A stretch of 32,312 bases of DNA from Bacteroidota bacterium (GTDB lineage Bacteria; Bacteroidota; Bacteroidia; Chitinophagales; Chitinophagaceae), in the NCBI GenBank assembly GCA_030706735.1, contig JAUZNZ010000043.1, positions 1-32,312 on the forward strand. The letters run 5' to 3'. Positions within the stretch are counted from its first letter, which is position 1. Every line of letters begins with the position of its first letter. Below the pieces are notes generated by a model. It was not told where the DNA came from. It ran no database searches and saw only the letters and a list, made by a program, of their open reading frames with translations. The translations under genes and the position numbers were made by a program. Positions 2,496-20,153 of this stretch are shown here, one piece after another.

Positions 2496-2504
2496 AAATA
2501 GGAA

Positions 2505-2526
2505 GACTCCGGTTTGAGCCGGAGTC
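2505..2526 (-). promoter_or_regulatory. Perfect 8-bp stem hairpin in leader of PqiA-like gene
   Basis: GACTCCGG and CCGGAGTC form a perfect 8-bp GC-rich stem with a 6-nt loop. Read on the minus strand it ends 9 nt before the ATG at 2495, where it could cover the ribosome-binding region. A proper U-tract is missing, so a terminator is less likely. If translation really starts further upstream, the repeat would lie inside the coding sequence and mean little. Confidence 0.35.
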
Positions 2527-2616
2527 CTGCTTGCACCCAGCATAAAAAATTGTGCCAGGGCGCCATGCCGCCACGCCGCCGGCTCACCGGAAATAGCCAA
2601 CGGCTAATTCAGCGTA

Positions 2617-2672: not shown

Positions 2673-4388
2673 ATGAACCAGCTAACCAGTTTACTTACAG
2701 CCCGTTGCTTCGTGGGTATGCTGCTGATCCTTCCAATGAGCCTCAGGGCCCAGCAAGTGGAGCAGATGATGCAAGCGCGTCCTGTCGTTCTTTCAGGCAG
2801 CGTGGATGCAACGGCCATTTTCTACTCCAGCACGGGTATCTCGCCCCGTTACCTGCCCTTCAACTACGTCCTTGCAGGTTCGCCGGTACTTTCACTTTAT
2901 GGATGGCAGGTTCCCTTCAATTTTATTATTGGAAAACAACAAAACAGCTTTACCCAGCCTTTCAACCAGTTTGGCCTGAGTCCCTCTTACAAATGGATTA
3001 CTGTGCATGCGGGCTATCGCAGTCTCAACTTTTCTCCCTTTACGCTGGCCGGGCACAGTTTTCTGGGCGCCGCGGTCGAATTAAATCCCGGTAAGTTCAG
3101 GTTTGCGGTGCTATACGGTCAGTTTAATAAGGCGACTCCCCTGGATACGGCCCAGGCCTTGTATTTTTCGGGGTTCTCCTATGATCGTAAGGGCATGGCG
3201 GTGAAGCTGGGCTACGGAACGCAGGAGAGCTACTTCGACCTGATCGCCTTGAAAGTCCGTGATGACCCAGGTAGCGTAAGAGGCCGCAAGGGCATGGCCG
3301 ATTCGCTGGGAATCGCCCCTGCGGAGAATATGGTGACCGGGTATAGCATGCGGCTAAGTGTCTGGAAGCGGCATCTCAGCCTGGAAAGCGATGGCGCCAT
3401 CAGTCTCTACAATAACGATATTCGAACGCCGCGAATACAAGATTCCGCTTTTGAAAAAGTGAAGTGGCTGAATAGCCTGGCAACGGTCAGTACCAGCAGC
3501 GAAGTGTACGGCGCCATTCAGGCCGCGTTGCGGTATAAGACCAGGAATTTCTCCGTTCGCCTTCAATACCGGCACGTCGATCCGGGTTATCAGACGATGG
3601 GGGCTTACTTCCTGAATAATGACCTGGAGAACTATACCCTTGCTCCGGCCTTCGCTATATTACGGAGCAGGCTGCGATTCAACGGCAGCATTGGGTTCCA
3701 GAAGGATGATCTGGCAAACAAGAAGAGATCCCGCTCGAATAAGGTCATCGGCTCAGCCAATCTTTCCGCCGAGATCAGCCCGAGATTGGGCCTGGACGCC
3801 AGCTTCAGCAATTATTCGATCAGCCAGACGGTCAAGACGATCCGGTTTGCCGATTCGCTGAAAGTGGTCGAATCGAGCAGCCAGCTGTCCCTGTCACCCC
3901 GTTACATCGTCGGCGGGAGGGAATACAGCCATTCGATATTGTTCTCCGCAAATATCAGCCGGGCCAGAGAATTGAACCCCGCAAGAGTCGATTCTTTCAA
4001 TAGCGACATAGACACCTACAATTATCTGTTGAACTACCAGCTCGGACTTACCCGGCAATATGCTTCGATCTTCATCTCTCTCAATCACACCGAGATGAAG
4101 GGTGCAAACCTGACGGATGGGAACATGGGGGCGACCATCGGCTGTTCCAAGGCATGGAAAAAAGGTAAGTTGAACCTGTCCGTTACCGGCGGCTATCTGT
4201 TAAGCAAGAGAAATGAAGAAAAGGGGAAGATCCTAACCGGGTCGATGCAGGCGAGGTACAACTTCATCGGCAAACATTCCTTACACCTGACGGCATATTA
4301 CACGGCAAATACACCAGATCAAGTCACGGCCTATTATCCGAAATATACGGAAACACGAGGGGAGATCGGATATGGGCTTTCTTTCTAA
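2673..4388 (+). CDS. Outer-membrane beta-barrel protein, first gene of the surface operon
   Basis: This 571-aa protein has a clear Sec signal peptide ending LRAQ (about residue 26). It is followed by a long series of amphipathic beta-strands with alternating hydrophobic and polar residues and frequent aromatic girdle positions. The C-terminus is GEIGYGLSF, ending in the Phe typical of outer-membrane barrels. A motif-rich early region (QPFNQFGLSP, GYRSLNFSPFTLAGH) looks well conserved. I recognise this style from Bacteroidota hypothetical outer-membrane proteins but not a named family. It heads a tightly packed seven-gene run and its end overlaps the next gene by 17 nt, which suggests it is the outer-membrane port or anchor for the giant protein that follows. 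It shows no SusC plug and no TonB box. Confidence 0.8.
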   Translation: MNQLTSLLTARCFVGMLLILPMSLRAQQVEQMMQARPVVLSGSVDATAIFYSSTGISPRYLPFNYVLAGSPVLSLYGWQVPFNFIIGKQQNSFTQPFNQFGLSPSYKWITVHAGYRSLNFSPFTLAGHSFLGAAVELNPGKFRFAVLYGQFNKATPLDTAQALYFSGFSYDRKGMAVKLGYGTQESYFDLIALKVRDDPGSVRGRKGMADSLGIAPAENMVTGYSMRLSVWKRHLSLESDGAISLYNNDIRTPRIQDSAFEKVKWLNSLATVSTSSEVYGAIQAALRYKTRNFSVRLQYRHVDPGYQTMGAYFLNNDLENYTLAPAFAILRSRLRFNGSIGFQKDDLANKKRSRSNKVIGSANLSAEISPRLGLDASFSNYSISQTVKTIRFADSLKVVESSSQLSLSPRYIVGGREYSHSILFSANISRARELNPARVDSFNSDIDTYNYLLNYQLGLTRQYASIFISLNHTEMKGANLTDGNMGATIGCSKAWKKGKLNLSVTGGYLLSKRNEEKGKILTGSMQARYNFIGKHSLHLTAYYTANTPDQVTAYYPKYTETRGEIGYGLSF

Positions 4389-7300
4389 AATCAAGTTCAT
4401 GCGTTTGCGAAGCATCCTTCTTTTAGTCATTTTGACCCTGTATGCAGGCATGCATCGGCTGCATGCCCAGCAGGATATCAGCATCAACGTGCAGGTTAAC
4501 CGAATGGCCGATGGATCCTATCCGACCAGGATCTATCAATTCAACAATACGCCGGGTCTGATCATGGTGAACCTGATCAATCATACCAATACGGTGCAGA
4601 CTCTTTACCTTGACGGCGCGGTGACCGGCGACAATGGCGTCAAGATCATTACCGCCAGGGGCTATCAGCCTGCTTCTTTGACTCTCAAGCCTTTCGAAAC
4701 CAAGATCCTCAATGCCATCGAGGCCGGCAGTCTCTTCGATCCGAATAGTCTCATTTACCTGTCCGGGAATACGAGCGTAAAGGCCTCGGTGTTTGGTGAA
4801 CAGGGCTTGCCGGAGGGAACCTACCAGGTTTGCGTGCGGGCCTTCGACGCGTCCACGCGTAAACCCTTGTCCGAAGAGGATCCTGTCGGCTGCAGTAATA
4901 TTTTTACGGTGGCCAGCCTCGAACCCCCGGTTATTCTGAGTCCCATCAACGAAGATTCGATCCGGGCCGTCGGCCCGCAGAACATCGTCATGCGATGGAC
5001 GACCCCTCCCGGCGCTCCGCAATCCACACAATACCGCATCCTCCTTTATGAGGTCATGAGCAATTATTATACGCTCGATAATGCGTTGTTGTCACAGCGC
5101 CAGGCCTTTTTCGACCTGACTGTCCAAGGCACCCCGCTGTTGTTGTACTCGATGCAGTATCCACGCTTGCAGGAGGGTCGAAGTTATGTGATGGCCGTCA
5201 TCGCCTCCGATCCTTCCGGTTCTGTCCATTTTCGTAATCAGGGCGTGAGCGAACCGGTACAGTTTACCTACGCGCCGAAGCAATCCGGATCGGGCATTTA
5301 TGCCCTCTCCGCAAATGACCTCATCGTTTGCCCCACCTGTATGAATACAATAGCGGATACCAGGGCGGTCGATGTGTCCAATATCGGCATTGGCGACAAA
5401 CTGCAGATCGACGGTTTTACGCTCGAGGTTACTAAACTGATCGGAAACAGCAGTGGCATCCTGCGAGGCAGCGGGAAGATCAAGGTGCCTTTTTTAAAGT
5501 TCATTCCGGTCGAGGTTCGTTTCGACGATGAGGACGGCATCCAGCTCAATGCCTCCAAACAAGTCATCAGCGGGCGCGTTTACGGACAACGACGTAATGA
5601 CGCGGCCAGCATGGTGCCGGCCTATGACCCCCTCCAGCCGAACCTTACACTGAACCCAGCCACTTTACAGAATTTTAGTCAGTACCTGTCCAGTTATTTG
5701 GCCAGTAACCTGAGCCCTGATAACGCGCTGGGGTATTCGTTGCCGGTAGGCTTGGACAATGTCGGCGGGGTGACGATCGCCATCACCGATATGACTTTTA
5801 CCCCCACTTCCGCGATCTTCAATGCCGGAGCTGAACTGGACATTCCTGAAGCCTCCATGACCGTCGCGCTGGGGGGCTCCCATATCTGTTTTTCAAACAG
5901 CACCATGGTATGCGGCACCGGCCGTCTCTACCTTGAGAAGGACTTCGTCCTGGCCGGTACCGGCCTGGCCCTGCTAACGAAGGCGGGGGCAGATGATGGA
6001 ACCTATATCGAATTGGGAAAGGATGGGATGGACCACATGCGCATCAAAGGCCAGTACAGTTTTGCCGCCACGCTGTTGGAGAAAAAAGGAGGCGGTACAG
6101 TGAATGCCCGGTTGACAGTGGAATCGACGAAATCATGGTCGGACTGGATCGCATCCGTTCAAATCGACCCCTTCCATATCACAGGCAATGCCGATTTCGG
6201 ATTCGATCCGGGAACCGCCTGGTACGATCACTCTGACAAGCAAAACCCGCCGGGAATTCCCGCGACCTATGAAGAAGGCCAGACACCCACATGGCGTGGA
6301 TTTATCATCCCCCAGATGCAGATCGAATTGCCGCCGGTCATCCGAAGCTTTGCCAATAGCCAGATCATGGCGTCGGCGCAGAACTTTATTATCGATAACC
6401 AGGGAGTCTCCGGCACACTGGGAGCGGATAATATACTCGATATCGGGAGCGGTTCCCTGGGCGCCTGGCAGTATTCCGTAGACCGGATCGAAGCGGTGTT
6501 CGTAAAGAATTCCTTCACGACCGGCAATATGCGTGGTCAGGTCGTTTTGCCGATCACCGACGCCAACGACATATCCTCAAGGCTGGATTATACTTGCCTG
6601 CTCAATAACCGGAATGGCCTTCAGTTCCAGTTTGCTATCGTTCCCAGGAACGATATTAATGTTCCGCTATGGTTGGTGCAGCTTAAACTGGACGCCACAT
6701 CGAGCATCCTGGTCACGGCAGGTGGGGGGTCCGGGTTTAAGGCCCAGGCCATATTAAATGGCGACCTCAGCTTCAAGACCGACCTGGGGAAGCCGCTGGG
6801 TCATGTGGACCTTACGCTGATCGGGTTCAATAAGCTCACGTTGAACAGTAGCGCTCCCTTTATCAGCGACGGGCAGTTTGTGGCAGGCCACTCGAGCCCG
6901 CCGAAATTCCTGAGCGGTTTTCCCGTCAGCATCCCGGAGGGACAATCGCCTTCCTTTGTCTTCAAGGGCAATTCGGCAGGCCTGAGGGTCCCCTTGCTCA
7001 TCCAGTTGACCGAGGCGCAAGGCCAGCCTTCTGCGGCCTTCAGTTTTACGGTGACGGGGTCGCTGCGTGTTGACGCGCAGGGCAGGGTCAGCCCCGATCC
7101 CAATCCCAGCCTTTCAGTGGACTCCATCGCCGTTGATGGGGACCTCGGGCCCGTCTCCATACATGGCCATGTCCGCTTTTTCGACCAGGATGATTATCCC
7201 CAATGGGGCGAAGGGGTGGTCGGAAGTCTTGGAGCCACTTTCCAGCCCGGGTTTTCCGTTAAGGCCACTGCACTATTCGGGAAGAAGGACTTTTCGTATT

Positions 7301-9984
7301 ATTTCGTTGGCGCCAACCTGACCCTGCCTGTGCCAGGCATCCCGATCGGCGGCGAGATCATCCCGCTCAGCCTGTTTGGGTTTGGTGGAGGAGTGTATCA
7401 CAATGTGAAGCTGGTGAATGATCCGAACAATAGTTCCCTCATCAATGGCGACGATCCCATGAATATGTTCACCCTGTCGCAAGGCACGGTGGGATTCATG
7501 GGCAGCATCACATTGGGTTCCAGCGATGAACAGATCCTGGTCGGCAAGGGCATCCTGGATGCCGAACTAAATGAGAATATGTCTTTTAAATCCTTCTCGA
7601 TCATCATGGCCGCATCGATGTTCACCCAGACACCCGGGGACGCTTCGACGGGGTTGATCACCGGGCATGGAGGGATCGAATATGATTTTTCCCAGCAACA
7701 GCTCAACGCCGGCATCGATGTGGACATCGCTGTACCGGGAGGATTCGCCCAGGGCAAGGGCAAGCTGGCGCTGATGGCCAATTTCAACACGGGCGATTGG
7801 TTCTTCAAGATCGGGGAAGCGGTGCCTGAGGATCAGCGCGTCAGCATGCAACTTTCCACACCCCTTCTCCGTCAGCTCAACTTCGATTTCAAAGCCTATT
7901 TGAACCTCGGCAAAAACCTCCGCCTTCCTTCGGATCTGGAAGCGATCTACAGCAGTGTGGAAGGAGATTTGGTAAAGCCGGCCAGCTATGTCGATCCCGT
8001 CAGCAACCAGGCAAAACCCTACCTAAGTACGGACGGCATGCTTTTGGGCGCCAAAGCCAGCGCGGACCTCGACCTTCGGTTCCTGATCTTTTATGCCAAA
8101 ATGGGCGGATACCTGGGCTTCGACCTGGCATTGGTCAGGACACAACGCAAATGCGACGACGGAAATATGGCCGGATTGAACGGTTATTACGCGATCGGCA
8201 AGTTGGGAGCGGGCTTCACGATGGATTTCGGGCTATATGTGGACGTATGGTTCTTCAAGGGGACGGTCAGTCTGGCGGCCGCGGATGTCGGGGTAGACAT
8301 TACGGCCGGCTTCCCCAATCCCCTCGTGTTGCAGGGATGGGCCTATGCCAGGTATAGCGTGCTGGATGACCTGATCAGCGGACAAATGAATTTCCGGGTA
8401 AGTTATTCGAGTGGCGGAGGTACGAATTGTTCCCTGCCGGCCAATCCATTCGGCGACCTGCCCCTGATCAGCGGCATCTACCCGGCCAACGGCGACCTGG
8501 CTGTAAATATCATGAGCAACATCAACGTCGCTTTCAATTTCCCTGTGAACAGCGAGTTTACGGTGAACACGCTCGACGAAAGCACCGGGAAATTCAGTAC
8601 AAAAACGCTGAAGGTCGTAGTCAGCCACCTCGAAGTCAAGGCAGGGGGCGGAAAGAATTATACCTATGCCGCGGACATGGACGCAAACGGGAATGCGACG
8701 ATCAGTGGATCCGACGAGGGAACGAAGATCTCGGCCATTTATCATAATGCCCTGTTATATGGATGGAAGAATGCGTTCGATGCGAATCGTGTACACCAGA
8801 TCAAACTGAGCGTGTTAGGGCTAATGCTCAACGAGAAAACAAAGGCATGGGATATCAAGGCGAGCGTGATCGATTCCGTCCTCACGTTTACTACAGGCGA
8901 ATGTTTAAAGCGGTTGGATCAAACCGATACGGTGAGCGTCGGCAGATTGGGCAATGTCGTGCTTGCCGCGGCGGCCAGGGCAAGCTATCCTTTTCCGAAC
9001 CAACGTTATTTTCTGCCGGGACAGTATGACCATGGCTTTATTCAGCTCGGCCGGCAGATCGATTGCCTGTCCGATCCGCCGCAGCAAAGCAAGTTGTCTC
9101 CCATCCACATCACCAAATACGATCTGTTCGCCAGGTTCATATCGGAGACCGACCGCTTCGAATCGCCCGTCACCCAACAGGGCTTGCAGTTGGTCTTTCC
9201 GATCCCCAACTTGTCCCCCGCCACCGTATATAAGCTCCAGATCGTAAAAAGGCCTGCATATAATACGACGCTGCAGGACGCCATGAGCGTTGCCCGCTTG
9301 CAGACTCCCCCGCCGAATAGTGTTACGAAGACGATCGATTATATCGGCCAGGACAAGACCCTTACCAGGAACGACGTTGTCGTACAGAACTTTTCGGCGG
9401 CCATGGTCACCTCCACGAGGATCGACGACGAAGAGATATACCACTACTATTTCAGGACGAGCCGGTTTAACAAGTTGCAGGAGAAGATGAGCGGGTCGGC
9501 TCAGGGAGGGGGCGTAACCTGGGCTTTGTATATGCCATCCTTCCAGGTCTCGATGGTAGAGGGTTTGGACGTCTATGACGCCAGTGGATATGCCTTTGAT
9601 GGATCGGGTACCGGTGAAACGGACTGGTTCATACCTCCGACGGTCAACCTGGATGAGAAATACAGCGATAATCCATGGATGCAAAAGGTGATCACTCCCC
9701 TCGTTACAAATTACAATATCATCAGTCCCTATGATCCGATGGCTGTCTACAACAACCAATGGAGCCTGATCAGTCCCGTGGGAGGCGGTAGTGCTTTTAC
9801 CCGGACGGTCATCCAGGGAGAAGAGCCCTTTGTCGTCTCGGGTGCGGAACAACCGTTGCAACCAAATGAGATCCCACTCTTACTCCGTTTTGGAGATAGC
9901 TTTTTCGTGACGCCCAATCTGAATAACGGGGTGGCTACTCCCGCAGTCAATAAGATATCTCCGAAGCTAAAAGTTATCAAATGA
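4372..9984 (+). CDS. Giant secreted beta-rich protein with TANFOR-like N-terminus
   Basis: This 1870-aa protein is predicted to be exported by a signal peptide ending LHAQ. The ATG at 4372 overlaps the barrel gene and is preceded by a purine-rich stretch; an ATG at 4399 would give a cleaner signal peptide. Residues about 35-180 resemble the N-terminal region of large Bacteroidota surface proteins labelled TANFOR (LPEGTYQVCVRAFD is characteristic). An FN3-like Ig segment follows (about 185-310), then a CPTC motif at 320-323. Residues about 330-1350 are long beta-rich stretches without a family I can name. An SbsA/Big_5-like Ig domain (ISGIYPANG, FNFPV) starts near 1364. No catalytic motif and no recognisable T9SS C-terminal domain are visible. 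It is probably a surface-exposed filamentous or scaffold protein that works with the adjacent barrel; that role is inferred. Confidence 0.8.
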   Translation: MGFLSKIKFMRLRSILLLVILTLYAGMHRLHAQQDISINVQVNRMADGSYPTRIYQFNNTPGLIMVNLINHTNTVQTLYLDGAVTGDNGVKIITARGYQPASLTLKPFETKILNAIEAGSLFDPNSLIYLSGNTSVKASVFGEQGLPEGTYQVCVRAFDASTRKPLSEEDPVGCSNIFTVASLEPPVILSPINEDSIRAVGPQNIVMRWTTPPGAPQSTQYRILLYEVMSNYYTLDNALLSQRQAFFDLTVQGTPLLLYSMQYPRLQEGRSYVMAVIASDPSGSVHFRNQGVSEPVQFTYAPKQSGSGIYALSANDLIVCPTCMNTIADTRAVDVSNIGIGDKLQIDGFTLEVTKLIGNSSGILRGSGKIKVPFLKFIPVEVRFDDEDGIQLNASKQVISGRVYGQRRNDAASMVPAYDPLQPNLTLNPATLQNFSQYLSSYLASNLSPDNALGYSLPVGLDNVGGVTIAITDMTFTPTSAIFNAGAELDIPEASMTVALGGSHICFSNSTMVCGTGRLYLEKDFVLAGTGLALLTKAGADDGTYIELGKDGMDHMRIKGQYSFAATLLEKKGGGTVNARLTVESTKSWSDWIASVQIDPFHITGNADFGFDPGTAWYDHSDKQNPPGIPATYEEGQTPTWRGFIIPQMQIELPPVIRSFANSQIMASAQNFIIDNQGVSGTLGADNILDIGSGSLGAWQYSVDRIEAVFVKNSFTTGNMRGQVVLPITDANDISSRLDYTCLLNNRNGLQFQFAIVPRNDINVPLWLVQLKLDATSSILVTAGGGSGFKAQAILNGDLSFKTDLGKPLGHVDLTLIGFNKLTLNSSAPFISDGQFVAGHSSPPKFLSGFPVSIPEGQSPSFVFKGNSAGLRVPLLIQLTEAQGQPSAAFSFTVTGSLRVDAQGRVSPDPNPSLSVDSIAVDGDLGPVSIHGHVRFFDQDDYPQWGEGVVGSLGATFQPGFSVKATALFGKKDFSYYFVGANLTLPVPGIPIGGEIIPLSLFGFGGGVYHNVKLVNDPNNSSLINGDDPMNMFTLSQGTVGFMGSITLGSSDEQILVGKGILDAELNENMSFKSFSIIMAASMFTQTPGDASTGLITGHGGIEYDFSQQQLNAGIDVDIAVPGGFAQGKGKLALMANFNTGDWFFKIGEAVPEDQRVSMQLSTPLLRQLNFDFKAYLNLGKNLRLPSDLEAIYSSVEGDLVKPASYVDPVSNQAKPYLSTDGMLLGAKASADLDLRFLIFYAKMGGYLGFDLALVRTQRKCDDGNMAGLNGYYAIGKLGAGFTMDFGLYVDVWFFKGTVSLAAADVGVDITAGFPNPLVLQGWAYARYSVLDDLISGQMNFRVSYSSGGGTNCSLPANPFGDLPLISGIYPANGDLAVNIMSNINVAFNFPVNSEFTVNTLDESTGKFSTKTLKVVVSHLEVKAGGGKNYTYAADMDANGNATISGSDEGTKISAIYHNALLYGWKNAFDANRVHQIKLSVLGLMLNEKTKAWDIKASVIDSVLTFTTGECLKRLDQTDTVSVGRLGNVVLAAAARASYPFPNQRYFLPGQYDHGFIQLGRQIDCLSDPPQQSKLSPIHITKYDLFARFISETDRFESPVTQQGLQLVFPIPNLSPATVYKLQIVKRPAYNTTLQDAMSVARLQTPPPNSVTKTIDYIGQDKTLTRNDVVVQNFSAAMVTSTRIDDEEIYHYYFRTSRFNKLQEKMSGSAQGGGVTWALYMPSFQVSMVEGLDVYDASGYAFDGSGTGETDWFIPPTVNLDEKYSDNPWMQKVITPLVTNYNIISPYDPMAVYNNQWSLISPVGGGSAFTRTVIQGEEPFVVSGAEQPLQPNEIPLLLRFGDSFFVTPNLNNGVATPAVNKISPKLKVIK

Positions 9985-10607
9985 GGAATATAATGGCTAT
10001 AACCCGGTTATGCGCATTGCTCTTGCTTGCCCGCCCTGCACAAAGCCAGCTGGCCCTGACGCGGAATGGCGCCCTGGCGGCACTGAACAGTAGCCTTGCG
10101 GCATCGGCGCGCAACCTGCCGCCGGTAAATCCGGTAAGCCTGGCGACGAACCCGGTTCCTGTTCCGCCGGTGACCAAACCGGTCAACCTCAGCAACCCCG
10201 TGCTCCTGCCGCAGGTCATGAACGACAAAACGCTATGGTTCACCTACCGTTCGCCCCTAACCTGGTGGACAGCGTATTTCAATTACAAGACTGCGGCGGA
10301 AGGGGCCATGATCGGCGGCTTTGCGCTGATGAGCCACCCGGAGGTGGCGATCGCGATGGCCTTCCTGGAGGATCAAGGACATTTCATCCCGCTGCAGTCT
10401 TTTAGCCCGCGACAGACGACGATGACGATCCGTGCGAATGATCCTGTGCCCGTGCAGTTTTCGGATGTACGGAACATTAACAACGCGACCGTGTCGCTGC
10501 GTGAATATGTCCCGCACCTGGCGGGATTTTACGCGGAGCTTCCGTTGAGCTTTCCCGGACCGATCAACATCCCATTCAATAACCCCAACAATGCCGTGTT
10601 GAAATAA
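9981..10607 (+). CDS. Small secreted protein, unrecognised, coupled to the giant protein
   Basis: This 208-aa protein starts inside the stop codon of the giant gene (ATGA overlap, 9981-9984), a strong sign of translational coupling. A Sec signal peptide runs to about residue 23 (RPAQSQ); an alternative ATG at 9993 would give the same mature protein. Residues about 25-75 are a low-complexity linker rich in Ala, Asn, Pro and Val (repeated NPV/KPV and PPV). The C-terminal half (about 80-208) is a compact beta-rich domain with many aromatic and Pro residues (LWFTYRSPLTWWTAYFNY). I do not recognise the family. A role as accessory or capping subunit of the giant protein fits the coupling but is not shown by the sequence. 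Confidence 0.75.
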   Translation: MRNIMAITRLCALLLLARPAQSQLALTRNGALAALNSSLAASARNLPPVNPVSLATNPVPVPPVTKPVNLSNPVLLPQVMNDKTLWFTYRSPLTWWTAYFNYKTAAEGAMIGGFALMSHPEVAIAMAFLEDQGHFIPLQSFSPRQTTMTIRANDPVPVQFSDVRNINNATVSLREYVPHLAGFYAELPLSFPGPINIPFNNPNNAVLK

Positions 10608-10618
10608 TCTGATCCATT

Positions 10619-12733
10619 ATGCGCATGTACAGATCGCTTTTTCGTCCGGGACTCTTTTGCTGCCTGCTGTTGGCGTTGGCCGGGCAAAAAGCCCATGCAC
10701 AGCAAAAACGAAAAGAGTACATGATCATGGGTCGTTATTTCGGACGGGCCGTGGTGTTGCGATGGGCTCCTGCTACGTCGCAAGCCTGGGAACGGGCCAA
10801 TGCGGCCGGCTATCGCTTGTACCGTTTTGATTTCAATGAAACGGAGAAGAATCCGCTTAGTAACCTGACCACCTTGAATGCCGTTCCATTCAAACCCTTT
10901 ACGCTCGACCAATGGAAAGAACGATTTGGGCCTGCAGATACGGCTGCGGCCATTGCGGCCGAACTGTTGTATGGCAAGAAATTCGAGACGGCGGTAAAGC
11001 GACAGGGTCAGCTGAGTTGGGGAGACGCCTATACGCAGGCGATGGATAGGGACAACCGCCTCGGGTATGCCTTGATGAATGCGGATATGCATCCGAAGAT
11101 TGCCGCGGGCATGGGGTGGCGATGGGAGGATAGTACGGCAGCGCCCGGAAGAGAATATGTATATATGTTGATCATTCCTGCCTCCGGTACGCATGCTGCC
11201 GATACGGTCTCGACAATGGTGTCTTCACGGGAGGCATACAAGAGGCCGGACATGCTACCCGTTGCGGCTATGCCCTGGGACAGGACCGTCACCTTATATT
11301 GGAATAAGCGAATGGCTGCACAGCTATTCGGGAGCTATTTCATCGAAAGGTCCGATGATGGAGGCCAACATTTCCATCGTTTGAACAAGTTGCCTTACTT
11401 CAGTAACGGCAAGAACGGCGGGAAAGAAGACTGGATTCAATACACGGATAGCATCCCCCGGAATTACATGATCTATTATTACCGGGTGGTTGGGTTGACC
11501 GCATTCGGCGAGACCAGCCTGCCCTCGTCCCCGGTTAAGGCATCGGGCCTGGACAAGACGGCGCCGGGCTCGCCACTCAATGTAAGGGCGGAAAATATTG
11601 GGGGCAGTCAGGTAAGGATCAGCTGGCAGAAGCCTGTATTGGAAAAGGACCTTGCCGGGTATCTTGTGGGCAGGGGCCATTCCGCAGAGGGGCCGTTCTT
11701 TCCTCTGGACACGGTACTATTGTCTCCGGAAAGGCAAAATACAATTGACCCTTCGGCGGTGGCCTGGGACGAGAACTTCTATATTGTCGCGGCCATCGAC
11801 ACGGCGGGTAATACGGTGCGCTCGCTCCCTGCCTATGTGATCATGAAGGATACCATTCCACCTGCCGCGCCCGTGGGCCTGAGAGGCAAGATCGATTCCA
11901 ATGGGCGGGTACAGCTACGCTGGCTTGCGAACAAAGAACCCGATGTGGAAGGATATAACGTGTACGTATCCAATAACGCGGCACAGGCGTTCTACGCAAT
12001 TACTCCCAAACATATACGCGACACCTCATTTGCCGATTCCATTACGCTCAAGTCTCTAACCCGCCAAGTGTACTACCGTGTATGCGCATTTGACAGGGCC
12101 GGGAATCCGGGGTCCTATTCCGACATTCTAACGCTTACGAGGCCGGACATCGTCCCGCCGGTTCCCCCGGTATTCAACCGTCTCCTGATCACGGATAGCA
12201 GCGTTACCGTGCAATGGGCGCCTAGCAGCAGTGAAGATGTTGCATGGCAGACCATTTGGAGGAGAGAGAAGAATGCCGCGGCCTGGACAAGGCTCGACTC
12301 CCTGTCGAAAGACAAATTTATTTTTATCGACCGCGGGGTGGAGCGCCTGAAGGTGTATCAATATAGCCTGAGGGCCATCGATAGCTCCGGTCTTTCCTCA
12401 GAATTTGCCTTTCCGCTGGAGGCGCGTATCTATGATAATGGCAGGCGAAAGGAGATAGATGAGCTCAAGGTGAATATTACGCCCGACCGGCAGATCCGCC
12501 TGTTTTGGACCTATAACCTGCCTGACCGCCTGCATGTGCGCTTTATCATTTACCGGAACTATAATGATGGGGGGCTGGAGATGTATAAAAATATCCCGGG
12601 GGAACAGAGCGTCTTTACCGACAACCGGCTGCCCGGACCGGGCAATTACCAGTATGCGGTGAAAGTCGTCACGGATGATGGCGGGGCATCGCGGCTGGCG
12701 ATGTCGGGAACGGTGCACTATGAAAATAAATAA
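10619..12733 (+). CDS. Secreted multi-fibronectin type III protein
   Basis: This 704-aa protein has a signal peptide ending AHAQ (about residue 29). An N-terminal FN3-like beginning (VVLRWAPATSQAWERANAAGYRLYR) is interrupted by a helical insertion (about 75-150). Four or five tandem FN3-type modules then follow from about 205 to the end, each with the usual pattern: a Pro-rich start, a conserved Trp in strand B (LYWNK, ISWQK, LRWLA, VQWAP, LFWTY) and a Tyr in strand F (YYYRVVG, YYRVCAFD, YQYSLRAID). Linkers such as DKTAPGSP and DTIPPAAPVG mark module boundaries. FN3 arrays in Bacteroidota surface proteins act as spacers or adhesion rods. No enzyme domain is visible. It lies 11 bp after the 208-aa gene and 15 bp before the IPT/NHL gene, as part of the same operon. 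Confidence 0.85.
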   Translation: MRMYRSLFRPGLFCCLLLALAGQKAHAQQKRKEYMIMGRYFGRAVVLRWAPATSQAWERANAAGYRLYRFDFNETEKNPLSNLTTLNAVPFKPFTLDQWKERFGPADTAAAIAAELLYGKKFETAVKRQGQLSWGDAYTQAMDRDNRLGYALMNADMHPKIAAGMGWRWEDSTAAPGREYVYMLIIPASGTHAADTVSTMVSSREAYKRPDMLPVAAMPWDRTVTLYWNKRMAAQLFGSYFIERSDDGGQHFHRLNKLPYFSNGKNGGKEDWIQYTDSIPRNYMIYYYRVVGLTAFGETSLPSSPVKASGLDKTAPGSPLNVRAENIGGSQVRISWQKPVLEKDLAGYLVGRGHSAEGPFFPLDTVLLSPERQNTIDPSAVAWDENFYIVAAIDTAGNTVRSLPAYVIMKDTIPPAAPVGLRGKIDSNGRVQLRWLANKEPDVEGYNVYVSNNAAQAFYAITPKHIRDTSFADSITLKSLTRQVYYRVCAFDRAGNPGSYSDILTLTRPDIVPPVPPVFNRLLITDSSVTVQWAPSSSEDVAWQTIWRREKNAAAWTRLDSLSKDKFIFIDRGVERLKVYQYSLRAIDSSGLSSEFAFPLEARIYDNGRRKEIDELKVNITPDRQIRLFWTYNLPDRLHVRFIIYRNYNDGGLEMYKNIPGEQSVFTDNRLPGPGNYQYAVKVVTDDGGASRLAMSGTVHYENK

Positions 12734-12748
12734 CCTTAATCGGAGAAC

Positions 12749-14698
12749 ATGAGAGCAAGCAAACCATTCCAAACCGACCGGGGAGCGGTCCCCGCCTGCC
12801 GAAGCATACCGGCGATCGCCATGCTCTTCGCGCTGTTGTGTGCCACCTGTGCCAAACAGAATGTATTCCAGGAGCCGCCGGACGCGCCGGCGATCGACAG
12901 CGTCGCTCCGGCCAGGGGTAAGGTGGGCACGCAGATCCGTCTGTTTGGGAGCGGGTTCGCCTATTCGCCGTCCCGGAATATAGTGAAAGTAAACGGCACG
13001 ATGGTTCGCGTCGATTCCCCTTCTTCAAGCACGGTCGTACTGGCGACCATAACAAGCGTTACCGGAACGGGCCATGTACAAATCACGGTAGACAGCCGGA
13101 ATGGGGAAGGCCCGATATTTACATACGACGAAAATGCGGTGAGCCTCAATAGCCTTACGCCCTCCGTGGGTTGGGTCGACACGCTCGTGACCCTCCGCGG
13201 CGCGGGATTCGGGACCAACCCTGATTCGGTAACGGTAGACTTCGGGGGGCACCCTGCGTCGATCCAAAAATTGTCAGATACGCTGATCCTGGCCGTTGCG
13301 CCGGATGCGCTCAATCAAAATACGGGGACCGTTGCGGTGACGGTGACCGTGAATGGAAGAGGATCAAACGGGCTCAATTATACCTATGCCGCCAAACCAC
13401 AGATCACCAGCGTAACTGTGCCAAACAGACCGGCGTATCATATTGCGGCGGGAGACACAGCCACGATCACCGGTCTGCATTTTGGGGTGTTGCAGCAAGG
13501 AGCCGTCGTCGAACTATGGCATACTCAAATCGATGTGGTACACCTTACACCCGATCCCGCCATTCTTTCCTGGAATGATAATCAGGTCAGGGTTATCATT
13601 CCCGCATACAATGAATCTGATGGCGCGTTATTGCAATTATTTGTGAGGCAAGGCAGCCAGTTTGGAGAAGCGGACGTGACCTACCAGGCGGCTGTTACGC
13701 AAGGTGCGGCCGTCGTTTCGACCATTGCCGGGAATGGCCTGCTCGGTCTGGTCGATGGTCCCGGTTCCAGTGCCGAATTCTCCTACCCGAATGGGATTGC
13801 GGTCGCCCCCAACGGCAATATTTACGTGGCGGATATGGGAGCCATACGCATGATCGACCAGGCGGGTCAGGTCAGCACCATTGCGGGAGCAGCCCTGACG
13901 GGATACCAGGACGGATTGGCCTCTGTCGCCCGCTTCGATCATCCATCTGCATTGCTCATCGATGCGGCTGGTGATATCTACGTGGTGGATAGCTACAACC
14001 ACGCGATCCGGAAGATCACGTTCAATCACAATCCGACGTTGACCCTGCCGCCGCAGGTCAGCACGGTTGCGGGCGGCACGAGGGGCAACCTGGATGGAGT
14101 GGGACAAGGCGCGGAATTCAACACGCCGGAGGACATTTGCATGGACGCACAGGGGAACCTGTTCGTAACCGACGCATATAATCATCTGGTCCGCAAGATA
14201 ACGCCGGGAGGAACGGTGACGACCGTAGCCGGAAATCCAACGGCTGGATATGCCGACGGTACGGGGACGGCCGCATCCTTCTCCGATTTCGGGCCTGACG
14301 GGATCATGATCGACGGCTCGGGGAATTTCTATTTGGCGGAGGCCAATGCCAACAGGATAAGGATGATGACGCCCGGGTATGTGGTCAGCACGTTCGCCAG
14401 TTTTAAATTCGGGTATGCCGACGGGCCGCTTACCGACGCTTACCTGCTGCACCCTTATGGCATGTGTCATGACCAATCGGGCGCTATTTACGTTTGCGAC
14501 ATCGATAATAACATGATCCGAAAGATCGCTGCGGGGCAGGTGACCCGCGTGGCGGGTTCGGGCCATGCAGGGTTCGACGACGGTCCAGGGCCTTCGGCGA
14601 CCTTACATGCACCGACGAAGATCGCCATTGACCGTCAGGGTAATTTATATGTGACGGACCTGGCAAATTATGCGATCAGGAAGATCAGCTTCCAATAG
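12749..14698 (+). CDS. IPT/TIG and NHL-propeller surface protein, probable lipoprotein
   Basis: This is a 649-aa protein. The N-terminus has a hydrophobic segment (AIAMLFALLCATCAKQ) with Cys near residue 34 that could be lipidated, although the lipobox is not canonical; an internal ATG at 12821 would give a shorter signal. Three IPT/TIG Ig-like domains follow at about 50-128, 129-213 and 215-308, shown by SVAPARGKVGTQIRLFGSGF and SLTPSVGWVDTLVTLRGAGF. From about 320 to the end there are five or six NHL repeats of the type VSTIAGN...DG...F..P.GI..D..GN.YV.D..N..IRKI, forming a six-bladed beta-propeller. IPT-plus-NHL proteins are common Bacteroidota surface proteins thought to bind carbohydrate or protein ligands. 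No catalytic residues are evident. Operon position suggests that it is part of the surface assembly or presents a ligand to the downstream sensor. Confidence 0.88.
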   Translation: MRASKPFQTDRGAVPACRSIPAIAMLFALLCATCAKQNVFQEPPDAPAIDSVAPARGKVGTQIRLFGSGFAYSPSRNIVKVNGTMVRVDSPSSSTVVLATITSVTGTGHVQITVDSRNGEGPIFTYDENAVSLNSLTPSVGWVDTLVTLRGAGFGTNPDSVTVDFGGHPASIQKLSDTLILAVAPDALNQNTGTVAVTVTVNGRGSNGLNYTYAAKPQITSVTVPNRPAYHIAAGDTATITGLHFGVLQQGAVVELWHTQIDVVHLTPDPAILSWNDNQVRVIIPAYNESDGALLQLFVRQGSQFGEADVTYQAAVTQGAAVVSTIAGNGLLGLVDGPGSSAEFSYPNGIAVAPNGNIYVADMGAIRMIDQAGQVSTIAGAALTGYQDGLASVARFDHPSALLIDAAGDIYVVDSYNHAIRKITFNHNPTLTLPPQVSTVAGGTRGNLDGVGQGAEFNTPEDICMDAQGNLFVTDAYNHLVRKITPGGTVTTVAGNPTAGYADGTGTAASFSDFGPDGIMIDGSGNFYLAEANANRIRMMTPGYVVSTFASFKFGYADGPLTDAYLLHPYGMCHDQSGAIYVCDIDNNMIRKIAAGQVTRVAGSGHAGFDDGPGPSATLHAPTKIAIDRQGNLYVTDLANYAIRKISFQ

Positions 14699-14730
14699 CT
14701 TACCATTTTAAAATCCAGTAGCTTTAATAC

Positions 14731-17700
14731 ATGCGCATACGCAATATCATATGGTTATGCGGCATCCTGCTGTTTACTGCGGCGGGCGCACAACCCATCG
14801 ACACTTATTCATTTCGCCACATCAGTCAGCTGGAGGGGTTGGTCTATAATAATGTGTTCACCATGTTCCAGGACGCCAGGGGTTATGTATGGATCGGCAC
14901 CGAGAACGGACTTCAACGCTATGATGGCTCCCGTTTCGTCACCTACCAGGAAGAACTCAGTCCGTCGAACAAGAGTCACCTGGAGATCGGCATATTGGAT
15001 CCGATCGGCAGCGATCGCCTATTCCTGTCATTGCGAAGGAAGTTGGATATTTCCACGAATGCGTTCGGTTACTTTACGAAAAAGGACTTGCTGGCAAGTG
15101 CCGCAGGACCGGACGCCATCTTTCAGGGTGCAGGCGATACGTTATGGATATTGGGAACAAGGTTCGCCTATGCATGCACAAAAGGGGATACTATCAATGC
15201 CTACAGTATGGTAAGGGATACGGTCGCCAATCAGGTATGGGTAGCCCGCGAGCAGGGGCTGCTGCTCCTGGACGGCGGTACGAAAAGGATCTATTCATCC
15301 TCCAACAATGCCATTCATCATCCCTTGCTTGAATTGGCAGGCCCGATCGGAGCCAAGGGGATCATGATCGATAGCCGGCGGAACTTATGGATCAATACCT
15401 GGGTACACGCTTTTTACCGGTATGACGTCCGCACCAAAAAGCTGAGGAGTTATTCGCTGCGGGACTATAAATCGCCGGCCAGTGACGACGTGCCGCTATT
15501 GGTGAACCAGTTTTTCGAGGACAACCATCAACAGCTCTGGCTGGCCACCGCCAATGCCGGGTTGCTGAGGTATGACCGCGGAGCGGATCGTTTTGACGCG
15601 ATCACCGTCTCCAAAGACAATAGCCGGGGCATCCAGTATAATTACGAGATCTTTTGCTTGTTCCAGGACAGAGAGGGGAATATCTGGCTGGGGACGGACA
15701 AAGGCATCAATATTTTTAATCCCTATCGCCGGTATTTCCAGGTGATACGTAGCGAGCCGAATACGGCCAATACGTTACCGAGGCGGGAGATCGATGCCGC
15801 CATACAAACCAGGCAGGGGGATTTACTGATCGGGACCTGGGGCGGGGGCATGGTGGTCTATGACAGGTTCATGCAATTCAGGAGAAAGATCAGTTTTCCG
15901 GGGCTGGTCGAGGAGAACCTGATATGGTGCTTTGCGGAAGCCGCCGATGGGACGATATGGATCGGCTGCCAGCACGGCTACCTGCATATCTATGATCCAA
16001 AAACAGGCAAACTCTCGACCCTTCATCCCCCGGCCCTGGAGAACTCCACCGTACGATGCATGCGAATAGACGGCGCGGGAAATATTTTCTTCGGCCTCCA
16101 CAATGGAAAAGTTGCCCTATGGAACAGGCAGACTCAGGATTTCCAGGCCTATGCCGGCAAGAGGATGGATCCCGCCGACCCATTTACCCCGGTGTACAAT
16201 ATTTATGTCGATTCCCATAATTCCTGCTGGGCTGCGACAGGGAACGGGTTGAAGGAATTTGATAGGCGCCAACGGGTATTTACTCATGTTTATCGTCCGG
16301 CGGAGAGCAGTGCCAACGCCTGCAGGGGAATAGCGGAAGAAAATGATTCCACCTTGCTGTTGGGTCTCGTAAATGGCGGACTGGCTGCCTTTAATACCGC
16401 AACCCATGCATTCTCCTTCCCGCTCAGGGATTCGCGCTTAGCCGCATCGACGATTCATTCCATTCAAAAGGACCGGCATGGCAATACCTGGTTTACGACT
16501 GATTATGACCTGTATACACTAAACCCTTCGCAAAGTAAATACAGCAGCTATTCTATGGAACCGGGAGTCGTCAATTCCGCGTTCGAATCCTGCAATTTCG
16601 TCGCATTGAGTCACGGCCGCTGGCTAATCTCCAGCTTTACCGAAGCACTGGTTTTCTGTCCGGACTCACTCATCAATAAGGAAAATGCGGATTTGCCGGT
16701 GGAGATCACGGGGATGCGATTGTTCGACAGGCCATTATTCGTCGACTCCTTTCTATTGCAGCGGAAGCCTATGACTTTTTCGTATAAGGACAATTTTCTG
16801 ACTATCGAGTTCTCCACGCTGCAATTCTCCAACATCCGTAAGACAAAATACACGTACAAACTATCCGGCGTCGATCGCAACTGGGTGCGAACTGAATTGA
16901 CAGCGGCCAGCTATACCAATCTCAACCCGGGTAGCTACAGCTTCTTCGTGACCACGGATGACGCAGGAGACCGGAACAGGCCGGCAGTCTTTACCTTCGT
17001 CATACGTCCGCCGTTCTGGCAAACCTGGTGGTTTCGTCTGGTCTGTCTGGCGACCGCGATCTACCTTATTTATATCATTGCCAGGAGAAGGATCGGGGTG
17101 ATCAGAAGAGAACTTACGCTCAAAAGACAAATGCAGGAGGCAAAAATGATGGCTTTGCGCGCCCAGATGAACCCTCATTTTATTTTCAACTGCATCAACA
17201 GCATCGATGCCCTGATCCAGAGCAATGACAAATACCAGGCGACCGTATATCTGAATAAATTTGCTAAATTGTTGAGGAACATCCTTGACAGCTCTAAAGA
17301 GAATACGGTCCCGATCGGCAAGGACCTTGAAACGCTGGAGTTGTATATTCAACTGGAACAATTCCGAAACAATAACAGCTTCACCTATACCGTGCACATC
17401 GATGCCGCCTTATTGGCCTATGACATCCGGGTCCCGCCGCTAATCGTGCAGCCCTATGTGGAGAATGCGATCCAGCATGGACTGCGTTATCGCAACGACA
17501 GGGACGGTAAGCTGAAAGTGGATGTCAGGCAGCAAAACGGGCAGTTATTCTATACCGTGGAAGACAATGGCATTGGCAGGGAACTATCGGCCAGACTGAG
17601 GAGTGGTGAAAAGAGATCTTACGGGATGGATATGAGTGCAGACCGGATACAACTTTTCAACAAGGAACAGCAGGCATCCGTACGGATCGAGGACCTGATG

Positions 17701-17754
17701 GAGGAGTCCCGGCCGGCGGGTACGAGGGTGACGGTGGCTTTAAAAATCGACTGA
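14731..17754 (+). CDS. Sensor histidine kinase: Reg_prop propeller, Y_Y_Y, LytS-type kinase
   Basis: This 1007-aa inner-membrane sensor has a signal peptide ending GAQ (about residue 21). A long periplasmic region carries Reg_prop two-component-regulator propeller repeats (GYVWIGTENGLQRYDG, GNIWLGTDKGINIFNP, GTIWIGCQHGYLHIYDP). A Y_Y_Y Ig-like domain (about 690-755) follows, then a single transmembrane helix (about 768-787). The cytoplasmic part is a LytS/YehU-type His_kinase (PF06580) with the phospho-His in MNPHFIFN (His816), an N-box VENAIQHG (Asn912) and DNGIG at 945-949. The kinase passes phosphate to the separate LytTR regulator 2 nt downstream. Unlike hybrid two-component systems of polysaccharide-utilisation loci, receiver and output are not fused here. 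The gene follows the surface genes by 32 bp, so the sensor probably monitors assembly state or a ligand of that system. Confidence 0.93.
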   Translation: MRIRNIIWLCGILLFTAAGAQPIDTYSFRHISQLEGLVYNNVFTMFQDARGYVWIGTENGLQRYDGSRFVTYQEELSPSNKSHLEIGILDPIGSDRLFLSLRRKLDISTNAFGYFTKKDLLASAAGPDAIFQGAGDTLWILGTRFAYACTKGDTINAYSMVRDTVANQVWVAREQGLLLLDGGTKRIYSSSNNAIHHPLLELAGPIGAKGIMIDSRRNLWINTWVHAFYRYDVRTKKLRSYSLRDYKSPASDDVPLLVNQFFEDNHQQLWLATANAGLLRYDRGADRFDAITVSKDNSRGIQYNYEIFCLFQDREGNIWLGTDKGINIFNPYRRYFQVIRSEPNTANTLPRREIDAAIQTRQGDLLIGTWGGGMVVYDRFMQFRRKISFPGLVEENLIWCFAEAADGTIWIGCQHGYLHIYDPKTGKLSTLHPPALENSTVRCMRIDGAGNIFFGLHNGKVALWNRQTQDFQAYAGKRMDPADPFTPVYNIYVDSHNSCWAATGNGLKEFDRRQRVFTHVYRPAESSANACRGIAEENDSTLLLGLVNGGLAAFNTATHAFSFPLRDSRLAASTIHSIQKDRHGNTWFTTDYDLYTLNPSQSKYSSYSMEPGVVNSAFESCNFVALSHGRWLISSFTEALVFCPDSLINKENADLPVEITGMRLFDRPLFVDSFLLQRKPMTFSYKDNFLTIEFSTLQFSNIRKTKYTYKLSGVDRNWVRTELTAASYTNLNPGSYSFFVTTDDAGDRNRPAVFTFVIRPPFWQTWWFRLVCLATAIYLIYIIARRRIGVIRRELTLKRQMQEAKMMALRAQMNPHFIFNCINSIDALIQSNDKYQATVYLNKFAKLLRNILDSSKENTVPIGKDLETLELYIQLEQFRNNNSFTYTVHIDAALLAYDIRVPPLIVQPYVENAIQHGLRYRNDRDGKLKVDVRQQNGQLFYTVEDNGIGRELSARLRSGEKRSYGMDMSADRIQLFNKEQQASVRIEDLMEESRPAGTRVTVALKID

Positions 17755-17756
17755 GC

Positions 17757-18494
17757 ATGTTAAAGGCAGTGATCATTGACGACGAACTCAGGGGCCGGCA
17801 GGCCCTGTTGCAGAAACTTCGGGACTATTGCCCGGAAGTAGACGTGGTGGGAGAGGCCACAACGGGCCTGGAGGGGATCGAGGAGATCAAAAAGCACCAG
17901 CCAAACGTTGTCTTCCTGGATATCGAGATGCCAAGGATGGATGGTTTCGATATGCTCCGCCATATCGATAACAAGGAATTTCATATCATTTTCACTACCG
18001 CCTATGATCAATATGCCATAAAGGCGATCAAGTATGCAGCATTCGACTACCTCCTGAAACCGGTGGATATCGATGAACTGAAGGCATGCATCGGCCGGCT
18101 GACCAATCAGGCCAGCAACCAGATGGCCAGGAAGCTGGTGGCGCTCGAAGAGAACCTCCGTCCGGCTGTGAAATTGCATAAGATCGCCATACCCACGCTC
18201 GAAGGCCTGTCGTTCTTTAACCTGGCCGACATCATACGGCTCGAGGCCCAAAGCAATTATACCTGTCTCTACTTCACCGACCAGCCGCGCGTCCTGGCCA
18301 GCCGCACCCTGAAGGAATTCGAAGAGTTGCTGCCGGGCGATCTGTTCTTCCGGGCACATCATTCGCATATCATCAACCTGCATTACATCAAGAAATACGT
18401 CAAGGGCGAAGGCGGCCAGATCGAAATGAAGGACGGCGCCTTCGTGGACCTGGCCAGGCGTAAGAAGGAGGAGTTCCTGAAGCTGATCCGGTGA
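17757..18494 (+). CDS. LytTR-family response regulator
   Basis: This 245-aa protein has an N-terminal receiver domain (about 3-118) with the acidic pair Asp8-Asp9, the phosphoacceptor Asp55 (FLDIEMP), Thr81 and Lys101 (LLKPVD). The C-terminal LytTR DNA-binding domain (about 140-243) includes IRLEAQSNYTCLYF, ASRTLKEFEELLP and FFRAHHSHIINLHYIKKY. LytTR regulators bind direct-repeat DNA sites after phosphorylation. It starts 2 nt after the sensor kinase stop, so the two form a cognate pair. It closes the plus-strand operon and probably regulates it, perhaps through the repeat at 2617-2642. The next gene is convergent and ends 40 bp away. Confidence 0.95.
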   Translation: MLKAVIIDDELRGRQALLQKLRDYCPEVDVVGEATTGLEGIEEIKKHQPNVVFLDIEMPRMDGFDMLRHIDNKEFHIIFTTAYDQYAIKAIKYAAFDYLLKPVDIDELKACIGRLTNQASNQMARKLVALEENLRPAVKLHKIAIPTLEGLSFFNLADIIRLEAQSNYTCLYFTDQPRVLASRTLKEFEELLPGDLFFRAHHSHIINLHYIKKYVKGEGGQIEMKDGAFVDLARRKKEEFLKLIR

Positions 18495-20046: not shown

Positions 20047-20153
20047 GATTACAGGGATTTTGATCCAGGTCAAATAAAAATCATTTTATAATACCGGCGC
20101 CTAAAAAGGTTATCCTTTCATTGTGCTATTTTAACATGGAATCCATCCTGACC
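20047..20153. other. AT-rich spacer between fucosidase and hemerythrin genes
   Basis: This is a 107-bp spacer with no coding sequence. A short inverted repeat, AAAGG-TTAT-CCTTT at 20105-20118, gives a 5-bp hairpin followed by two more T on the minus strand. It could be a weak terminator for the hemerythrin gene. An AT-rich stretch at 20066-20095 probably contains the fucosidase promoter, but I could not assign both promoter boxes. Confidence 0.3.

What the first reader, a model, noticed from the sequence alone, without database searches (positions are those of the whole stretch)
2673..18494. Seven-gene surface assembly with its own LytS/LytTR control
An outer-membrane barrel, a giant beta-rich protein, a small coupled protein, an FN3 rod, an IPT/NHL propeller protein, a propeller-type sensor kinase and a LytTR regulator lie head-to-tail with gaps of 32 bp or less. 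No SusC/SusD, glycosidase or transporter is present, so this is not a standard polysaccharide-utilisation locus. The gene set reads like a self-monitoring surface structure (adhesion, sheath or filament) and I know of no named system with this content.
Basis: partly seen in the sequence, partly recalled or inferred. Interest (0 to 1): 0.7.

Follow-up and report, generated by a model that had tools for sequence, protein, structure and literature searches.

The report
Outer-membrane platform for giant TANFOR-like protein
Seven neighbouring genes form a real, inherited unit: a wide outer-membrane barrel protein, a giant partner protein related to a family of bacterial toxins, helper surface proteins and their own sensor and switch; the barrel-giant pair recurs widely in the phylum Bacteroidota and seems not to have been named.

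Summary
The seven genes are there as described: one strand, gaps of 32 bp or less. All seven recur in the same order in one other genome of the genus (L165), beside different genes. So the order is inherited, not a chance run.

The core is a pair. The 571-aa barrel has no Pfam, NCBIfam or PDB-sequence relative; AlphaFold gives an outer-membrane barrel, pLDDT 90, about 24 strands by my count. The giant's first ~300 residues are homologous to TANFOR-type domains, known from Bacteroidota polymorphic toxins (PMC7073777). Of 296 phylum genomes, 69 have a strong barrel hit, 71 a TANFOR-like hit, 68 both. Of 80 loci found with the barrel alone, 79 have the TANFOR-like gene directly downstream. Six single-chain TANFOR-barrel fusions exist.

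The window's giant has no recognised toxin domain, and its C-terminal region is conserved in kin. The FN3 rod is a usual third member; the other three slots vary.

Best reading: a dedicated outer-membrane platform that exports or displays a TANFOR-related giant. Whether the barrel or the type IX system moves it is open. The paper searches found none on this barrel.

The parts
2673..4388 (+). outer-membrane barrel, 571 aa, signal peptide by eye, about 24 strands predicted; constant partner
   Evidence: AlphaFold pLDDT 90, pTM 0.81; Foldseek best hit MtrB, E 8e-10; no Pfam, NCBIfam or PDB-sequence match; 1 of 16 family barrels matches OMP_b-brl at 0.0017
4372..9984 (+). giant protein, 1870 aa, signal peptide by eye
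   Evidence: ORF; matches in 29 of 147 family genomes, own included
4420..5274 (+). TANFOR-like N-terminal domain of the giant (residues 17-301)
   Evidence: 40% identical over 287 columns to the C35 paralogue, which matches TIGR02542 at 2.9e-13; boundaries
5737..8583 (+). CORE region of the giant (residues 456-1404), all-beta, no known fold
   Evidence: HMM; AlphaFold pLDDT 73, pTM 0.46; query-normalised TM 0.15 or less in the 50 rows listed
8938..9738 (+). conserved C-terminal region of the giant (residues 1523-1789)
   Evidence: present in 14 of the 20 CORE proteins of the family set; giant aligns up to residue 1851 with L166
9981..10607 (+). small protein, 208 aa, variable accessory
   Evidence: 2 of 58 genomes, own included; same place in L165
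10619..12733 (+). FN3 rod, usual third member of the cassette
   Evidence: fn3 5e-9; N-terminal profile strong in 30 phylum genomes, 29 of them with CORE; in 50 of 80 loci
12749..14698 (+). IPT/TIG plus NHL propeller protein, exchangeable slot
   Evidence: TIG 2e-26, NHL 1e-28; Kelch instead of NHL in L165, OmpA-family protein in the C19 paralogue
14731..17754 (+). Reg_prop/Y_Y_Y sensor histidine kinase of LytS type
   Evidence: Reg_prop 1.5e-27, His_kinase 5.9e-21
17757..18494 (+). LytTR response regulator
   Evidence: Response_reg 7e-23, LytTR 2.7e-16

Best explanation
A dedicated outer-membrane platform for a giant TANFOR-related protein. Proposed working: the structural proteins cross the inner membrane by Sec. 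The barrel folds in the outer membrane as a wide pore without a plug domain of its own. The giant's N-terminal TANFOR-like domain docks on the periplasmic side of the barrel, and the rest of the giant is exported or displayed outside, with the FN3 rod and the exchangeable propeller protein as accessories. The propeller kinase senses the envelope or an outside ligand and, through the LytTR regulator, sets expression of the operon. Shown by computation: gene order, homology, co-occurrence, a predicted barrel fold, natural TANFOR-barrel fusions. Inferred: signal-peptide export, docking, export at the barrel, the roles of rod and propeller protein, what is sensed and what is regulated. In this copy the cargo looks structural; in some relatives the TANFOR-like protein ends in a toxin domain.
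For: Strong barrel hits in 69 and TANFOR-like hits in 71 of 296 phylum genomes, 68 in common (hypergeometric p 4e-62, not corrected for relatedness). Of 98 strong barrel hits, 63 have a TANFOR-like hit within 1.5 kb, all 63 on the same strand, 59 downstream; 22 more at 1.5-15 kb, all on the same strand. 79 of 80 loci found with the barrel alone have the TANFOR-like gene within 300 bp downstream. 31 of 33 in the family set, but that set was seeded with the giant. Six single-chain fusions, TANFOR-like domain first and barrel last, among 20 regions picked partly for this; the window's domain matches one directly at 2e-11. TANFOR-like domain and CORE are separate neighbouring genes in G138, G016 and G146. 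CORE strong in 31 and rod profile in 30 genomes, 29 in common; all 31 CORE genomes have a strong barrel. Barrel model. Seven-gene block in L165.
Against: No direct evidence of docking or export. All 69 strong-barrel genomes also have SprA (229 of 296 have it; p 1e-9, uncorrected), which fits type IX export as well. TANFOR-like proteins occur without a barrel nearby: 8 of 41 regions of the family set hold no barrel gene (some are contig ends), and of 122 TANFOR-like hits in the phylum 32 have no strong barrel within 15 kb (20 of them none on the contig). 10 of 98 strong barrels have no TANFOR-like hit on their contig and 3 only a far one. The two family-set barrels without an adjacent TANFOR-like gene (G114C1a, G071C3) lie in loci with an SprB/sorting-domain protein. 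The gate of so wide a pore was not identified. Fold hits are broad: MtrB, SlpA, ushers, but also porins, LptD and TonB receptors. The regulator link is adjacency alone; no repeat pair of LytTR type was found upstream of four operons.
Confidence: 0.5

Rival explanations
1. The giant is exported by the type IX system (SprA), and the barrel is only its surface anchor or shuttle, as PorV or SprF are for other cargo (recalled).
For: SprA in all 69 strong-barrel genomes and in this genome; PMC7073777 proposes type IX export of TANFOR proteins; SprB plus Por_Secre_tail proteins lie in three related loci.
Against: None of the seven proteins matches a sorting domain at E 0.1, and the barrel matches no family. 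Co-occurrence is confounded by lineage: of the 20 SprA-free genomes that one search lists (47 more are not listed), 17 are of one family, f17.
Confidence: 0.3
2. An uptake or transfer device: the barrel is a large porin, and the giant beta-rich protein captures or shields a lipid or glycan at the surface.
For: Convergent alpha-L-fucosidase next door; local fold similarity of CORE to LptD, SlpA and ApoB100, with query TM-scores of only 0.10-0.15; one of 18 related giants matches the SusC/RagA model at 2.8e-5 and two match CarboxypepD_reg-type domains.
Against: No SusD or inner-membrane transporter matched in the run; two related TANFOR-like proteins end in nuclease toxins.
Confidence: 0.12
3. 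A toxin system in which this giant is itself a polymorphic toxin with an unrecognised C-terminal toxin.
For: TANFOR relationship; EndoU and colicin-type DNase C-termini in two related proteins; among CORE giants the last 150 residues fail to align in 138 of 214 ordered pairs.
Against: No toxin Pfam domain in the window giant or in 73 related C-termini, 16 of them of CORE giants; 53% identity to L166 as far as residue 1851 of 1870; among giants without CORE the end aligns in 563 of 660 pairs; the downstream 208-aa protein matches no family. The unaligned CORE pairs printed are at 26-34% identity, so sensitivity limits that test.
Confidence: 0.08

Closest known systems
TANFOR-domain polymorphic toxins of Bacteroidota (TIGR02542; Jana et al. 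2020, PMC7073777)
   Same: Homologous N-terminal domain behind a signal peptide; very large proteins; FN3, SprB and sorting-domain neighbours in related loci, as that paper reports.
   Different: The window giant does not itself match TIGR02542, has no recognised toxin C-terminus and no evident immunity gene; its constant partner is an outer-membrane barrel, which the parts of that paper that I read do not mention.
Type IX secretion and SprB-type loci
   Same: SprA in every strong-barrel genome; three related loci include an SprB-repeat protein with a sorting domain.
   Different: No sorting domain in the seven proteins; the barrel matches no family.
MtrB and chaperone-usher ushers (PapC, FimD)
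   Same: Large outer-membrane barrels among the best Foldseek hits (8e-10, 3e-8; SlpA and its kin rank between).
   Different: No family match to ushers, chaperones or multihaem proteins; TM-scores of 0.2-0.5 only.
Two-partner secretion (TpsB/TpsA)
   Same: Barrel gene directly upstream of a giant whose common part is the N-terminal domain.
   Different: No POTRA or TPS domain matched.

Membership tests
TANFOR-domain proteins | match to TIGR02542 | tested here: not met
   Window giant: no match at E 0.1. 8 of 18 related giants match at E 0.01; 9 of 296 genomes match at 0.001, none over the curated cut-off. So TANFOR-related, not filed as a member.
TANFOR-domain proteins | homology to proteins that do match | tested here: met
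   40% over 287 columns to the C35 paralogue, itself a match at 2.9e-13; 2e-13 to the EndoU-bearing protein.
Polymorphic toxin | C-terminal toxin domain and adjacent immunity gene | tested here: not met
   None recognised; C-terminal region conserved in L166.
Type IX secretion substrate | C-terminal sorting domain | tested here: not met
   None of the seven matches one at E 0.1.
Type IX secretion substrate | SprA translocon in the genome | tested here: met
   G000:C13, 2447 bits.
Polysaccharide-utilisation locus | SusC/SusD pair | tested here: not met
   No such match in the seven proteins.
Chaperone-usher system | usher family sequence and periplasmic chaperone | tested here: not met
   No match.
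Two-partner secretion | POTRA domains and TPS domain | tested here: not met
   No match.
Any export system | giant reaches the cell surface in a barrel-dependent way | not testable with these tools
   needs experiment

The most novel reading that the evidence does not exclude
An undescribed two-partner-like outer-membrane route spread through the Bacteroidota: a wide, roughly 24-strand barrel is the dedicated port for giant proteins that carry an N-terminal TANFOR-like address domain, some structural (as here) and some ending in nuclease toxins. It would be the export step that TANFOR toxins have lacked.
Probability: 0.3. Interest if true: 0.87.

Novelty: new variant of a known kind. Interest (0 to 1): 0.7.

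Why it matters
TANFOR proteins were described in 2020 as a toxin class whose way out of the cell is a hypothesis (PMC7073777). A barrel that nearly always sits with TANFOR-like proteins in the genomes sampled gives that question a concrete candidate that can be deleted. It also shows that many TANFOR-like giants have conserved ends without a recognised toxin, so 'toxin' may mislead annotation. The window's barrel matches no Pfam or NCBIfam model, and profiles of barrel and CORE match no solved structure at E 0.5 or better.

Tried and rejected
All seven genes as one indivisible system: rejected; the 208-aa gene, the fifth slot and the regulator pair vary. Polysaccharide-utilisation locus: rejected. 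Toxin reading of this giant: lowered. LytTR-type repeat pairs in 300 bp upstream of four operons: none, null means 0.14-0.37. Promoter and terminator scans uninformative. RNA families: none over threshold. CORE fold search: no usable match. Named-genome scan with the giant: no relative; with nine barrels: 373.

Limits of the counts. One search prints only part of its weaker matches. Weak TANFOR-like hits (E 8e-6 to 6e-4) in six f17 genomes were not followed up; at least one of these (G214) lacks SprA. Weak barrel relatives of 800-920 aa are in no strong count. In one search the contig-end fragment G356 was not counted as CORE. The 80 loci are the best 80 of 373, and at least four of them are contigs of equal length to ones in my unnamed set (L166, L215, L223, L243). 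The 41 family regions were fetched for their giant matches, so barrel adjacency there is not independent. Regulator counts rest on alignment to the window's regulator, not on a LytTR model. The 24 strands were counted by eye from the DSSP line; signal peptides were judged by eye. Domain scans of related proteins were selections. The promoter pattern, PorV/SprF roles, barrel topology and the taxonomic placing of hosts are recalled.

Full report
WHAT IS IN THE WINDOW. The window is contig 39 of a 5.05-Mb, 100-contig genome. Seven genes lie head to tail at 2673-18494 on the + strand, with two overlaps and gaps of 32 bp or less. Pfam recognises FN3, IPT/TIG with NHL, a Reg_prop/Y_Y_Y histidine kinase and a LytTR regulator; the barrel and the 208-aa protein match nothing in Pfam or NCBIfam, and the giant only fn3, below cut-off.

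THE UNIT IS INHERITED AS A BLOCK. A search of 58 genomes (own included) with the 208-aa protein gave one other, G446 of the same genus, whose contig has the same length as one of MAG SZAS-41 (L166). There all seven genes follow in the same order on one strand: barrel 572, giant 1881, small protein 220, rod 740, IPT protein 760, kinase 1014, regulator 247 aa, at 71, 53, 37, 60, 60 (IPT part only), 48 and 71% identity (kinase and regulator domains). The block lies between a ribosomal S7 gene (S12 beyond it) and a gene with an elongation-factor GTPase domain, EF-G by its start (my reading), so its neighbours differ from the window's. The IPT protein there ends in a Kelch propeller instead of NHL.

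PARALOGUES AND FAMILY. The giant has matches in 29 of 147 genomes of the family, own included; two other genomes of the genus in that sample had none. The own genome has two more cassettes: C19, barrel-giant-rod, then an OmpA-family protein, a Reg_prop kinase and a regulator; and C35, barrel-giant-rod. I read 41 regions of the family set: 33 hold a barrel and 8 do not. 31 of the 33 barrels have a TANFOR-like gene directly downstream (the set was seeded with the giant), 26 of the 33 barrel regions hold the rod, and 7 a kinase with a full-length regulator. CORE is in 20 proteins and the conserved C-terminal region in 14 of those.

THE GIANT IS TANFOR-RELATED. Its first ~300 residues are 40% identical to the C35 paralogue, which matches TIGR02542 (T_forsyth_147, TANFOR) at 2.9e-13. 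8 of 18 related giants match TIGR02542 at E 0.01, the window giant does not, and no genome of the phylum sample passes the curated cut-off. So I call it TANFOR-related, not a TANFOR member. Jana, Salomon and Bosis (PMC7073777; I saw part 1 of 6 of the text, and 12 passages) describe TANFOR proteins as polymorphic toxins, perhaps type IX substrates, with SprB, FN3 and sorting-domain neighbours. Three related loci (L048, L054, L056) hold such SprB plus Por_Secre_tail proteins beside barrel, rod and TANFOR-like genes. Of 20 C-termini scanned from selected TANFOR-like proteins, two end in toxin domains, EndoU and colicin-type DNase. None of 73 C-termini from the barrel-seeded loci has a toxin Pfam domain.

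THE BARREL IS THE CONSTANT PARTNER. In 296 phylum genomes the barrel profile matches 127 and the TANFOR-like profile 84 at E 0.001. With strong hits only: 69 and 71 genomes, 68 in common (barrel only G364; TANFOR-like only G318, G336, G368), p 4e-62 without correction for relatedness. Of 98 strong barrel hits, 63 have a TANFOR-like hit within 1.5 kb (59 downstream, 4 upstream) and 22 at 1.5-15 kb (20 upstream, 2 downstream), all 85 on the same strand; 3 have one further off and 10 none on the contig. From the other side, of 122 TANFOR-like hits 64 lie within 1.5 kb of a strong barrel, 26 at 1.5-15 kb, 12 further off and 20 on a contig without one. In the named-genome collection, 373 stretches encode a relative of the barrel; of the 80 kept, 79 have the TANFOR-like gene within 300 bp downstream, L214 being the exception, and 50 hold the rod; in 48 of the 80 a rod lies within 1 kb behind a TANFOR-like gene. 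Hosts include Sphingobacterium, Pedobacter, Mucilaginibacter, Hymenobacter, Dyadobacter, Spirosoma and Chryseolinea. A full-length regulator of this kind lies in 28 of the 80 loci, an adjoining kinase-regulator pair in 9, a relative of the IPT/NHL protein in 7, and the 208-aa protein in 1.

FUSIONS AND SPLITS. Six open frames of 871-1016 aa carry the TANFOR-like domain first and the barrel last (L139-L144); they are among 20 regions that I fetched partly because the hits suggested this. One is matched directly by the window's domain at 2e-11. In G138, G016 and G146 the TANFOR-like domain and CORE are separate genes beside the barrel. Such fusions and splits usually mean that parts work together (inference).

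STRUCTURE. The barrel model has pLDDT 90 and pTM 0.81, 24 long strands by my count and no separate plug domain in its secondary structure. Foldseek's best PDB hits are MtrB (8e-10), then SlpA and related S-layer barrels (from 3e-9) and pilus ushers (from 3e-8), with porins, LptD and TonB receptors further down, at TM-scores of about 0.2-0.5 for the leading rows: a large outer-membrane barrel, no family assignment. CORE is all-beta with modest confidence (pLDDT 73, pTM 0.46) and no usable match.

HOW IT MAY WORK. The common part of the giants is the TANFOR-like domain just behind the signal peptide; the common partner is the barrel; where fused, the domain precedes the barrel, which by the usual topology of outer-membrane barrels (recalled) puts it in the periplasm unless it is threaded out. 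I propose, at about even odds, that the domain docks on the barrel and the rest of the giant is exported or displayed there. The main rival is type IX export with the barrel as anchor: SprA is in all 69 strong-barrel genomes against 229 of 296 overall (228 over the cut-off). That fits the rival but is confounded by lineage: 17 of the 20 SprA-free genomes listed (of 67) are of one family.

NOVELTY. Searches for TANFOR (as a whole word 3 papers, one of them off-topic), for TIGR02542, T_forsyth_147 and BaCT toxin, for the phrase 'polymorphic toxins in Bacteroidetes' and for a five-term combination listed no paper that by title and abstract start deals with this barrel; only PMC7073777 was opened. 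The library lacks most subscription papers and bioRxiv preprints, so absence is not proven. I file the find as a new variant of a known kind (TANFOR-related loci) with an undescribed barrel partner.

Noticed in passing
window 18535-20073: Alpha-L-fucosidase gene, convergent with the regulator gene and 40 bp from it.
   Followed up: partly
L165 1245-17697: The seven-gene block sits between a ribosomal S7 gene and an EF-G-like gene, splitting what is usually one ribosomal operon (operon recalled).
   Followed up: partly
L145 3800-10526; L146 7515-12226: Distant barrel relatives of 812 and 909 aa with a weak TANFOR-like gene nearby; in L145 the next gene has CHASE2 and adenylate-cyclase domains. 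Possibly a signalling version.
   Followed up: no
L165 5070-7352: IPT protein whose propeller is Kelch where the window's is NHL, behind a conserved IPT part.
   Followed up: partly
L151 9925-16707: A shortened barrel gene (336 aa) about 0.6 kb behind a TANFOR-like protein that ends in a colicin-type DNase domain; two further barrel hits over the whole profile lie elsewhere in that genome.
   Followed up: no
L147 896-13348; L154 7599-19106: TANFOR-like proteins of 4150 and 3835 aa on the same strand as a barrel gene.
   Followed up: no
window 1182-2600: PqiA-related membrane protein read divergently from the barrel gene, 72 bp away if its TTG start is right.
   Followed up: no
G214, G226, G341, G349, G353, G369: Weak matches to the first part of the TANFOR-like profile in short open frames (253-277 aa) of one genus in family f17, where SprA is absent in at least one (G214).
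   Followed up: no
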